Shown here in pieces: positions 5,701-8,677 of a stretch of DNA of 64,000 nt (position 1 is its first letter; each line of letters opens with the position of its first letter). Under the pieces are notes generated by a model. It did no database searches, was not told the DNA's origin, and worked only from the letters and a program-made list of their open reading frames with translations. The position numbers and the translations under genes are program-made. The stretch comes from Thermoplasmatota archaeon. Its GTDB lineage: Archaea; Thermoplasmatota; E2; DHVEG-1. The stretch covers positions 1-64,000 of the forward strand of contig JALOTN010000002.1 in NCBI GenBank assembly GCA_025457885.1. The letters are read 5' to 3'.

Positions 5701-7068
5701 ATGAACCAAAAAGTTATGTTGGGCAGTATTTTGTGTCTACTGCTGATGCTGGTGAGCACACAAACCGTGTTTCTGAACATCGTAAAATCCGACCCGCAAA
5801 TCCATCAAGGGGAAGCCTTCGTAGGGGATCTCTGGGTCAGTGAATTGAACGTCTCTTCAGTGTTGGAAGAGGTTGCTTTTGTTGGTATCGGTCATGCGAA
5901 TGCATCCGATGATTATGTGGCTTGGGAAACCGGTGAAGGCGATATTGTGGCGAATTGGACTGTACAGATCGAGGAACGATCACATCCGGATTACAATGTG
6001 ATGTTCAGTCTGATCGCATATAATATCGATGATAATAACTCAGAGATGGATACCGCGTATTGTGTCGAGGATTATGAGGCGAACACCGGATATAATGATA
6101 GCGGGTATCTTCGTCTCCATGTTGAGTTCGATAATGATTTTCTAAAAGTTAACACGGAGGCGACGTTGGTGTGTTATCTGAATGCCGCAGTGAAAATCAA
6201 TAATACTGAGGAAGCAGTGAATTTCACGACCTGGGGCCAGGATCGATGTATCATTGGTGTTGTTTTTGACTCGGGGTCATCGTTTGAGCCGTATTCTCAT
6301 TTCCGAGAAGAAGGGAATGATAATTTCCCGAATATCTGGTCCTGGTTACCTGGATGGAATGAGAGCAGCAGGTTTGATGATGAGCAGGATATGTTGGAGA
6401 ATCAGACGTTTTTCTATGTCAGTGGAAGTGAGCAGTCTGAAGAAGGTGATTGGCATCTTGGGGAATTTGATATAACAATGGGCCCTGGACTTCTTTATGA
6501 CGCTGATTTCAGTTATTATACTCAAAACTATCCTATACAATTTGATGACGGAGAACAAGTGGTTAATCCATACATATCATTGAACTATGATTATCATCAA
6601 GGCGCACCACAAAAATCAGTGAATAGATTTATCCTAATTCATGAAGGGATAGGATCATTAATTAATCGTACCAACGGAGGATCAGGTAGATATGCTCAAG
6701 ACTATATGGGTACAAGTTTTCTACTTCATGATTATGACGATCGGAACTCTGATGATTACATCATATTTGTCGGAAGGGCGTGGAGTAATGGTCTCTTACG
6801 ATCTTTGTCAAATCCTTTGTTATGTTCCGTTGAAATTGAAAGTGGAACAGGAGATCTACAATCATCAATGTACTCCAATGAAGGTTATTATTGGATGGAA
6901 AATTGTGGATACTTTAACACAACATACAGTCTTGATATAGATAGTTCGACAAATTTTGGGATAACAACCATCGATTGCGATATTTCAAATGTTCTACTTG
7001 ATAATGAACAATACGTCTATACCTATGCAGCTGATATAGGTGATACCCAGATAGCACTAACCTGTTGA
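5701..7068 (+). CDS. Secreted acidic protein of unknown function
   Basis: A 455-residue protein with an N-terminal signal/anchor segment (GSILCLLLMLVSTQTVFL) and a strongly acidic, aromatic-rich, sequon-rich exterior part without other membrane segments. The start is set by GGAGGT 10 bases before ATG. I recognise no domain. A Cys-containing YVAWETGEGD-to-NWTV stretch near residues 75-95 and a beta-rich composition suggest an all-beta exported fold. It stands alone between the TrmB-like regulator (divergent) and the insertion element. Confidence 0.75.
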   Translation: MNQKVMLGSILCLLLMLVSTQTVFLNIVKSDPQIHQGEAFVGDLWVSELNVSSVLEEVAFVGIGHANASDDYVAWETGEGDIVANWTVQIEERSHPDYNVMFSLIAYNIDDNNSEMDTAYCVEDYEANTGYNDSGYLRLHVEFDNDFLKVNTEATLVCYLNAAVKINNTEEAVNFTTWGQDRCIIGVVFDSGSSFEPYSHFREEGNDNFPNIWSWLPGWNESSRFDDEQDMLENQTFFYVSGSEQSEEGDWHLGEFDITMGPGLLYDADFSYYTQNYPIQFDDGEQVVNPYISLNYDYHQGAPQKSVNRFILIHEGIGSLINRTNGGSGRYAQDYMGTSFLLHDYDDRNSDDYIIFVGRAWSNGLLRSLSNPLLCSVEIESGTGDLQSSMYSNEGYYWMENCGYFNTTYSLDIDSSTNFGITTIDCDISNVLLDNEQYVYTYAADIGDTQIALTC

Positions 7069-7169
7069 CGAAAGAAAAAAAGATGATGTTATCATATACC
7101 ATCCACTCTCTTCTATGATAATTCTGTCATGGAAGAGCTTCTTTCTCTTTTTTTTTCTCATGACACAAT

Positions 7170-7184
7170 TTCATCGTGTTGCGA
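7170..7184. repeat. IS1111-type subterminal inverted repeat, 3' side of transposase
   Basis: ATTTCATCGTGTTGC is the inverse of the copy upstream of the transposase, with 14 of 15 bases paired and the inner 11 perfect. Confidence 0.7.
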
Positions 7185-7210
7185 TTCTTTTCCTACAGTA
7201 TCTTTTTTAA

Positions 7211-7370
7211 GATGGTGAGTATCGGTATGACGACACTCTTCTATTCGGGTACAGGTTCTTCGTCGAGGGAGAATTTGCCCATTATGGTGAGTCATTAGCT
7301 GCCCACTCTTTTTTTCAAAGGGTACAGTGATAGCCCATGAGAGGAAAGGGCAGCCGACATTCACCATCTT
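7211..7370 (-). ncRNA. Candidate bridge RNA of the IS1111-type element
   Basis: The non-coding stretch between the transposase stop and the subterminal repeat is closed by a perfect 10-base long-range inverted repeat, AAGATGGTGA (7211-7220) with TCACCATCTT (7361-7370). Inside are smaller hairpins, such as GCCC/GGGC, and a repeated CTGTACCC. Known for the family: IS110/IS1111 recombinases use a structured bridge RNA with target- and donor-binding loops. Inferred here from position and folding potential only; the loops were not matched to the element ends. Confidence 0.5.
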
Positions 7371-7386
7371 ATACATATGATAAGCC

Positions 7387-8406
7387 TCAGCAACTTCGTG
7401 GGTTGTATGGTTTCTTTGTCGTTAGCACCTTGTAGATGATGTCGGTCATGCTGGATGCGACAGCGACATGGGCGATGCCAGCGTTGTTCTTCTGTTTCTT
7501 TTTCTTCTGGTAGTATCTGCCTAGTTTGGTGTTTGTTCTTCCAGCAGCGTTCGCTGCTTGTATCAGTGCCCAGCGGAGATGTTTTCTGCTACTGGTCTTG
7601 GGTATATGGCCTTTGGATTTTTTATCAGCGGATTCTTGAAATGCTGGGACGACGCCAGCGTACCTGCGGAGTTTCCGGTTGGATGAAAAGCGGGTGATAG
7701 GGTGGATATGTGCGATGACGTAGCAGGAGAGGACTGGTCCGAATCCGGTGATACTTTGGATCAGTTGATATTCGTTTTTCCAGTGTTTCAGGGTGTAGCC
7801 GCTGATTTCTTGATCGAGATGTTCTGCTTGTTTCTCAAGGTAGATAAAGTGGTCGTATTCATAGCGTAACTCCAGGCTGACGTCGCCTGATCCAATGTAT
7901 TGGAGTAGTTGGTGTCTCCATTTTTTACTGAACGCCTCTTGATCTGGCATGATGATGCCGTTTCTGTCCAGGAATGCTTGTATTCGATTGTTGCATCGTG
8001 TTTTTTCTTCCATGAGGGTATGTCTTACTTGGAGAAGGCTTCGGAGGCGTTGGATCTTCTCATCGGGTATGTAGGAGCAAGGGAATGTGCCTAGTCGGAG
8101 CATTTCGGAGAGTCGTTGTGCATCCAGTTTGTCGTTCTTGGTGATGAGCTGGCGGAGTTGTATGGTGTTGGCGACTTTGATTTGGTATCCTTTTTTGAGG
8201 AAGTTCTGGTAGAGGGTGTAGTAGCTGGTGCAGGATTCTAGTCCTATGATCGCGGATGCCAGGTATGGTTTTAGTCGTGGTTCCAGTTCAGAATAGAGGG
8301 TAGCGGTCTCAGCCTCTGTTAGGATATTTCCTAACTGATTTCGTACGCAGTATGAGGTTTTTTGTTTATGGACATCTAGTCCGATAAAATATTTTGTGTT
8401 TTTCAT
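7387..8406 (-). CDS. IS110/IS1111 family DEDD transposase (recombinase)
   Basis: A 339-residue protein. The N-terminal RuvC-like DEDD domain shows D in FIGLDVHK, E in IGLES and D-x-x-D in NDKLDAQ. The C-terminal Transposase_20 domain shows SITGFGPVL, then RKLRRYAGVVP and the Ser-containing KTSSRKHLRWAL motif. The length is normal and the frame intact. The ATG at 8406 is chosen over the longer frame because AGGAG lies 8 bases upstream. It catalyses RNA-guided excision and insertion, with the adjacent non-coding stretch as likely guide. Confidence 0.93.
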   Translation of the reverse strand: MKNTKYFIGLDVHKQKTSYCVRNQLGNILTEAETATLYSELEPRLKPYLASAIIGLESCTSYYTLYQNFLKKGYQIKVANTIQLRQLITKNDKLDAQRLSEMLRLGTFPCSYIPDEKIQRLRSLLQVRHTLMEEKTRCNNRIQAFLDRNGIIMPDQEAFSKKWRHQLLQYIGSGDVSLELRYEYDHFIYLEKQAEHLDQEISGYTLKHWKNEYQLIQSITGFGPVLSCYVIAHIHPITRFSSNRKLRRYAGVVPAFQESADKKSKGHIPKTSSRKHLRWALIQAANAAGRTNTKLGRYYQKKKKQKNNAGIAHVAVASSMTDIIYKVLTTKKPYNPRSC

Positions 8407-8430
8407 GTTGCATCTCCTTTGTTTGGATAT

Positions 8431-8445
8431 GCAACACGATGTAAT
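8431..8445. repeat. IS1111-type subterminal inverted repeat, 5' side of transposase
   Basis: GCAACACGATGTAAT pairs with the copy at 7170-7184. It lies about 25 bases upstream of the transposase start codon. Confidence 0.7.
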
Positions 8446-8677
8446 CAAGAATTATCATGCCATCTTTTTTTTGTTTTTTTGTTTTAACTGCTGTTCTATG
8501 GTTTTTCCCAATCATTTTAAATACGAACAGATAGCCTTCGATGTTTTTAAATCCGTCCAGGGCTATTTTTGCTTTTATAAAACCTGCTTTAGTCCGCGAT
8601 TTGCTTCTCAATCAATACCTTCACAATCACCAACAAACAAAAATACATATCTAGGAGCAACTATTTCCAGCTGTCCC

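What the first reader, a model, noticed from the sequence alone, without database searches (positions are those of the whole stretch)
7170..8445. Archaeal IS1111-type element with a well-bounded bridge RNA candidate
A 15-base subterminal repeat, a short 5' flank and a 160-base 3' segment closed by a perfect 10-base helix (7211-7220 with 7361-7370) match the expected IS1111 layout. Archaeal bridge RNAs are little described, so this is a good test case.
Basis: partly seen in the sequence, partly recalled or inferred. Interest (0 to 1): 0.65.

Follow-up and report, generated by a model that had tools for sequence, protein, structure and literature searches.

The report
Archaeal RNA-guided IS targeting gene ends
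This is a real archaeal jumping gene of the IS1111 kind whose own guide RNA appears to steer it into the T-rich stop signals just behind genes, which makes archaeal bridge-RNA targeting directly testable; the machinery is of a known kind, but the target class looks unusual.

Summary
The element is real: an IS110/IS1111 transposase (7387-8406, minus strand) followed by a bridge-RNA-like structured RNA (7205-7372, minus strand). A second copy, split over two contig ends, and about 20 independent 5' and 26 independent 3' junctions in Thermoplasmatota relatives place the element at 7109-8462. Ten RNAs share a two-domain fold with compensatory changes in inner stems (0/500 shuffles as good). The long closing helix is invariant, so covariation says nothing for it. 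The donor loop carries ATAGAAGA, identical to the element's 3' end up to the GA core, and ACCAT, complementary to its 5' end. The target loop carries an A7GA guide and a variable guide. The variable guide matches the bases right of the core at its own sites and not at those of another lineage (p=0.0005 and 8e-5 against gene-end controls; swapped guides not significant). Sites are polypurine tracts: 23 of 24 scorable ones lie behind the stop codon of an opposite-strand gene (median 22 nt), i.e. in its presumed T-tract terminator. Known machinery; new archaeal lineage, apparently unreported target class.

The parts
7109..8462 (-). Whole element with one copy of the GA core; 1354 bp. Core copies at 7109-7110 and 8463-8464
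   Evidence: Second own-genome copy and about 20 five-prime / 26 three-prime junctions in relatives diverge at these points
7387..8406 (-). IS110-family DEDD transposase, 339 aa
   Evidence: PF01548 E=1.2e-17 and PF02371 E=5.4e-18; NF033542 IS110 family RNA-guided transposase 208 bits, cutoff 140; D/E/D/D and Ser align with IS621 8wt6
7205..7372 (-). Bridge RNA (seekRNA) candidate, structured core
   Evidence: Conserved fold with compensatory changes, z=-4.5; covariance model R1 recovers full-length RNAs only in this element family, plus degraded relics
7339..7347 (-). Target-loop guide 1 (TTTCCTCTC), complementary to core plus right half of target
   Evidence: Cognate match at the element's own two sites: p=0.0005 for the first 3 positions, 0.0025 for 5, 0.05 for 7, against gene-end background; foreign guide not enriched
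7306..7315 (-). Target-loop guide 2 (AAAAAAAGAG), same letters as the left half of target plus core
   Evidence: Left junctions are A-runs followed by GA in all copies but one; A-rich, so weak evidence by itself
7236..7244 (-). Donor-loop guide (ATAGAAGAG), same letters as the element's 3' end ATAGAAGA
   Evidence: 8-nt exact match, in register with the core, invariant in all RNAs
7283..7289 (-). Donor-loop guide (CACCATA), complementary to element 5' end (A)TGG[T/C]
   Evidence: Invariant 4-5 nt complementarity; short
7115..7125 (.). True sub-terminal inverted repeat, 3' end of element
   Evidence: I14; conserved at the outer edge in all copies
8448..8458 (.). True sub-terminal inverted repeat, 5' end of element
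   Evidence: I14
7168..7182 (.).
   Evidence: I2; core CAACACG conserved
8431..8445 (.). Inner inverted repeat, 5' copy; also pairs with the start-codon region (8403-8417/8425-8439)
   Evidence: I2 and I8
7126..7164 (.). Right-end hairpin GTCATG...CATGAC with a T-tract on the host gene's strand
   Evidence: Arms change together among relatives: GTCATG/CATGAC, ATCCTG/CAGGAT, CTATGAAC/GTTCATA
8465..8472 (+). Left half of the target: T8 tract, A8 in transposase orientation
   Evidence: Every 5' junction carries such a tract
7099..7108 (+). Right half of the target (CCATCCACTC; GAGTGGATGG in transposase orientation), 40 nt behind the stop codon of gene 5701-7068

Best explanation
An IS1111-group insertion sequence of Thermoplasmatota archaea. 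Its transposase uses a bridge RNA made from the region downstream of its gene. The RNA's donor domain reads the joined ends of the excised element (AGAATTATCAT-AGAA-GA-TGGY-ATGATAATTCT); its target domain reads a polypurine tract A(5+)-GA-R(n), where R is set by a variable guide. Exchange at the GA core puts the element, in one orientation, into the T-tract behind a gene, its presumed transcription terminator. Shown from sequence: element bounds, repeats, RNA fold, donor match, lineage-specific target match, gene-end location. Inferred: RNA expression, circular intermediate, recombination chemistry, terminator function.
For: Transposase family and catalytic residues. Non-coding region downstream of the gene, true 11-bp sub-terminal repeats. 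RNA: 98.8% of cells paired, 7 pairs with two-sided changes, covariation score 0.168 against 0.077 shuffled, 0/500, and 0.03-0.07 when slid. Donor guide ATAGAAGA identical to the 3' end in register. Target guide: first base after the core agrees with the guide in 9/9 lineages (one of eight sites in G169 differs); across-lineage permutation p=0.027. Cognate guides against gene-end A5GA background: p=0.0005 (window lineage, 2 sites) and 8e-5 (G169, 8 sites); swapped guides p=0.83 and 0.28. Location: 23 of 24 scorable sites have a convergent gene whose stop codon is 3-151 nt away, median 22. A motif built from the insertion sites, scanned over 382 kb of the same genome with no location used, puts 38 of its top 50 hits behind convergent genes (all within 100 nt), 12 inside ORFs and 0 ahead of a co-oriented gene.
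Against: No RNA-seq, no circle, no clean empty site. The target is low-complexity, so A-run matches prove little; wobble-tolerant permutation across lineages is only p=0.09, and over the full 7 positions the window lineage reaches only p=0.05. The outer helix never varies. The 5' strand of that helix could also pair with the donor-guide segment. The window copy has SA where the relatives displayed have SG, so it may be weak or dead.
Confidence: 0.83

Rival explanations
1. The element is an IS1111 member with an ordinary bridge RNA, but the gene-end location is survivorship: it inserts at many A-tracts and only insertions behind genes persist.
For: Genomes are about 87% coding by ORF caller, so insertions into genes would be lost.
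Against: Selection against gene disruption does not explain why almost no site is ahead of a co-oriented gene (1 of 24). The site motif itself falls behind convergent genes in sequence without insertions (38 vs 0 in the own genome). In G169 the skew is weaker (21 behind, 7 ahead in the top 50), so survivorship may add to it there.
Confidence: 0.12
2. Target choice is made by the protein (A-tract DNA shape) and the RNA is a structural or regulatory RNA.
For: Left half of all targets is the same A-run, which a protein could read.
Against: The right half differs between lineages in step with the RNA loop; homologues are shown to be RNA-guided (PMC11208160, PMC11187229).
Confidence: 0.06
3. The conserved outer sequences (ATGATAATTCT / AGAATTATCAT) belong to a repeated genomic palindrome that is the target, and the element ends at the reader's 15-bp repeat.
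For: Solo right ends occur in relatives; the right end forms a hairpin.
Against: The 5' end motif occurs almost only next to this element; in the 64-kb window the 3' motif occurs once; the right-end hairpin differs between lineages while the outer 11 bp stay, and the donor loop matches the outer end.
Confidence: 0.04

Closest known systems
IS1111 group of the IS110 family (ISEc11, ISPa11, ISKpn4, IS4321 and others; Siddiquee et al. 2024, PMC11187229)
   Same: DEDD transposase of about 340 aa, sub-terminal inverted repeats, long non-coding region downstream of the gene, structured RNA with the top-strand match 5' of the bottom-strand match
   Different: Archaeal lineage with at most about 31-32% transposase identity among the best hits in the plasmid collection (haloarchaeal); additional inner inverted repeat and right-end hairpin; target is a T-tract behind genes rather than a defined repeat such as attC or a Tn21 end
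IS621 bridge RNA system (Durrant et al. 2024, PMC11208160; PDB 8wt6)
   Same: Two guide domains, each with two guides for the two strands, short shared core; catalytic D/E/D/D and Ser align
   Different: RNA downstream, not upstream, of the gene; long sub-terminal repeats; donor domain in a multiloop; core GA rather than CT (the CT is from my own knowledge)
ISHvo10 and other archaeal IS110/IS1111 elements named in PMC11187229
   Same: Archaeal hosts, related transposases
   Different: ISHvo10 is reported to have long non-coding regions on both sides; here only downstream

Membership tests
IS110 family | DEDD_Tnp_IS110 plus Transposase_20 domains | tested here: met
   (NF033542 above cutoff)
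IS110 family | Conserved catalytic D/E/D/D and Ser | tested here: met
IS1111 group | Sub-terminal inverted repeats of 7-17 bp | tested here: met
   11 bp, 7115-7125/8448-8458, a few bases inside the junctions
IS1111 group | Longer non-coding region downstream of the transposase gene | tested here: met
   278 nt downstream against 56 nt upstream, from junctions
IS1111 group | Transposase 330-350 aa | tested here: met
   339 aa
IS1111 group | GL-P----S(T)G motif in the C-terminal domain | tested here: inconclusive
   Window GVVPAFQESA (SA); L025, L031, L026, L039 GVVP[AT]FHESG; L027 and L037 not shown by the script
IS1111 group | Specific target, conserved between copies | tested here: met
IS1111 group | Transposase clusters with IS1111 rather than IS110 transposases in a tree | not tested
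Bridge RNA / seekRNA | Structured RNA from the non-coding region, with conserved fold | tested here: met
Bridge RNA / seekRNA | One loop matches donor ends, another the target, on both strands | tested here: met
   left target guide is low-complexity
Bridge RNA / seekRNA | RNA is transcribed and binds the transposase | not testable with these tools
   Needs RNA-seq or co-purification
Bridge RNA / seekRNA | Match to a curated RNA family (supporting, not defining) | tested here: inconclusive
   No Rfam 15 match up to E=1; I know of no Rfam IS1111 bridge RNA family, so this does not count against membership

The most novel reading that the evidence does not exclude
A bridge-RNA element whose guides are tuned to a functional class of sites, the T-tract terminators at archaeal gene ends, and which carries a replacement T-tract in its right end on the host gene's strand, so that insertion in the fixed orientation restores termination. 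This would make it a dispersal strategy into harmless sites rather than a match to one repeat.
Probability: 0.4. Interest if true: 0.75.

Novelty: new member of a known kind. Interest (0 to 1): 0.56.

Why it matters
It gives a well-bounded archaeal bridge RNA with natural guide variants and many insertion sites, so guide-target rules can be tested outside bacteria. It also suggests that RNA guidance can be used to seek a degenerate, functionally safe class of sites. A polypurine-reading natural guide pair could be of interest as a recombinase tool.

Tried and rejected
Rfam scan gave nothing. Viral contigs gave no relative; phages only distant ones. Own genome has no other intact copy. Empty-site search for the window copy failed: in the two closest matches examined the methyltransferase gene has a different upstream neighbour. 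The same attempt from L026 was swamped by a repeated gene family. RNAalifold's alternative fold, pairing the 5' strand with the donor-guide segment, is not excluded by covariation because both partners are nearly invariant; I prefer the long-range helix by the layout of known bridge RNAs. A first guess that the outer repeats were a host palindrome was dropped. A5GA alone does not predict gene ends (4 of 53 in the window); the longer tract does. A working-note figure of 27/28 sites was a miscount; one search gives 23 of 24. Distant RNA hits in G044 and G060 are decayed or truncated relics.

Full report
OBSERVATION. The 15-nt inverted repeat is at 7168-7182/8431-8445 (93%), and the helix is 7208-7218/7361-7371 within an 18-nt arm pair. 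The reading frame 7387-8406 (minus) encodes a 339-aa IS110-family transposase: PF01548 and PF02371, NF033542 at 208 bits with a cutoff of 140, IS621 structure 8wt6 at E=2.5e-10.

BOUNDS. The genome holds a second copy, split over contig ends C11 (5' end) and C18 (3' end), identical over the shared stretch and in different surroundings. Relatives with 70-95% identical proteins occur in Thermoplasmatota genomes. Printed side by side, about 20 independent 5' junctions read A-run-GA|TGG[C/T]ATGATAATTCTTGA (one, L029, has AA for GA), and 26 three-prime junctions read AATTATCATAGAAGA|purine-rich, with few exceptions. Everything outside differs between copies. The element therefore runs 7109-8462, its core is GA, and its true sub-terminal repeats are the 11-bp ATGATAATTCT/AGAATTATCAT at 7115-7125/8448-8458.

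RNA. Ten complete downstream regions align at 82% mean identity. For the structure named (outer helix, target stem-loop, donor multiloop with inner hairpin), 98.8% of cells pair and 7 pairs have two-sided changes; 0 of 500 shuffles reach this, and sliding destroys it. The 10 sequences are related, so shuffles overstate significance; the slid control keeps relatedness, though it favours a structure drawn from these same sequences. The window RNA folds 4.5 sd below shuffles. A covariance model from these sequences found, in 80 genomes of the class, 11 full RNAs, all from this element family, and three degraded or truncated ones.

DONOR AND TARGET GUIDES. The invariant donor-loop segment ATAGAAGA equals the last 8 bases of the element including the core, and ACCAT is complementary to ATGG[T/C] at the other end. 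The target loop has GAAAAAAAGAG on one side, equal to the left target plus core, and a variable pyrimidine-rich segment on the other. The order (top-strand match first, then bottom-strand match) is that reported for IS1111 seekRNAs (PMC11187229). The variable segment predicts the bases right of the core: first base right in all nine lineages (one of eight G169 sites differs); across-lineage permutation p=0.027 (wobble-tolerant 0.09). With gene-end A5GA tracts of the same genome as background, the window guide fits its two sites (p=0.0005 over 3 positions, 0.0025 over 5, 0.05 over 7), and the G169 guide its eight sites (p=8e-5 over 3 and over 5, 0.001 over 7); swapped guides show no significant fit.

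WHERE IT INSERTS. Of 25 three-prime flanks long enough to score, 24 have an ORF, and in 23 it runs against the transposase with its stop codon 3-151 nt from the junction, median 22. The flank on the other side is mixed. A weight matrix from the junctions, scanned over 382 kb of the same genome, puts 38 of the top 50 hits behind convergent genes, all within 100 nt, 12 in ORFs and none ahead of a co-oriented gene; in 382 kb of the AT-richer G169 the figures are 21, 21 and 7. A5GA alone has no such preference. T-tracts behind genes are the form of archaeal terminators (U-tract; PMC8716108), so the simplest account is that the guide reads terminator tracts. No terminator was measured here. The element's right end also carries T-runs on the host gene's strand: 11 of 15 copies have a run of 6 or more, 4.0 expected after shuffling. 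This makes terminator replacement possible, not shown.

MECHANISM. By homology with IS621 and ISEc11: excision to a circle with donor site AGAATTATCAT-AGAA-GA-TGGY-ATGATAATTCT, recognition of donor and target by the two RNA loops, strand exchange at GA, fixed orientation. Bounds, repeats, fold and matches are shown from sequence; circle, RNA expression and chemistry are inferred. The window copy has SA in place of SG in the C-terminal motif (SG in L025, L031, L026 and L039; L027 and L037 were not displayed by the script). SG is reported as required in Piv, so this copy may be impaired; the middle of the second copy is not assembled.

VERDICT. It is a new archaeal lineage of a known system, with an RNA-encoded preference for gene-end T-tracts that I did not find described in the held literature; that library lacks most subscription papers and preprints.

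Noticed in passing
L114, L127, L128, L129, L130, L138, L144: Solo right ends of the element (mostly CTTCCATGAC-GAATTATCATAGAAGA) without any left end, several breaking in the A-rich hairpin loop; perhaps deletions between the target A-tract and that loop.
   Followed up: partly
window 8403-8439: Leader hairpin conserved in relatives: GTGTTGCAT pairs with ATGCAACAT over the start codon, with the ribosome-binding site in the loop; possible translational control of the transposase.
   Followed up: no
L163 / L029 (G085:C28): A copy whose 3' end breaks off inside the A-rich hairpin loop into a G-rich sequence near the contig end; either a deletion or a nested insertion into a target-like tract.
   Followed up: no
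L060, L074, L076-L082, L116-L123 (G169): One genome carries about nine nearly identical left ends and eight right ends, mostly at contig ends: a recent burst of a lineage whose guide reads AAAAAA tracts.
   Followed up: yes
L037 (G114:C77), positions 2792-2820: Tandem 14-bp duplication of the right end (AATTATCATAGAAG twice), which might mark insertion into a tract left by an earlier copy.
   Followed up: no
L159 (G044:C10): Decayed relic with the RNA still recognisable at 53.6 bits although no intact transposase was found beside it.
   Followed up: partly
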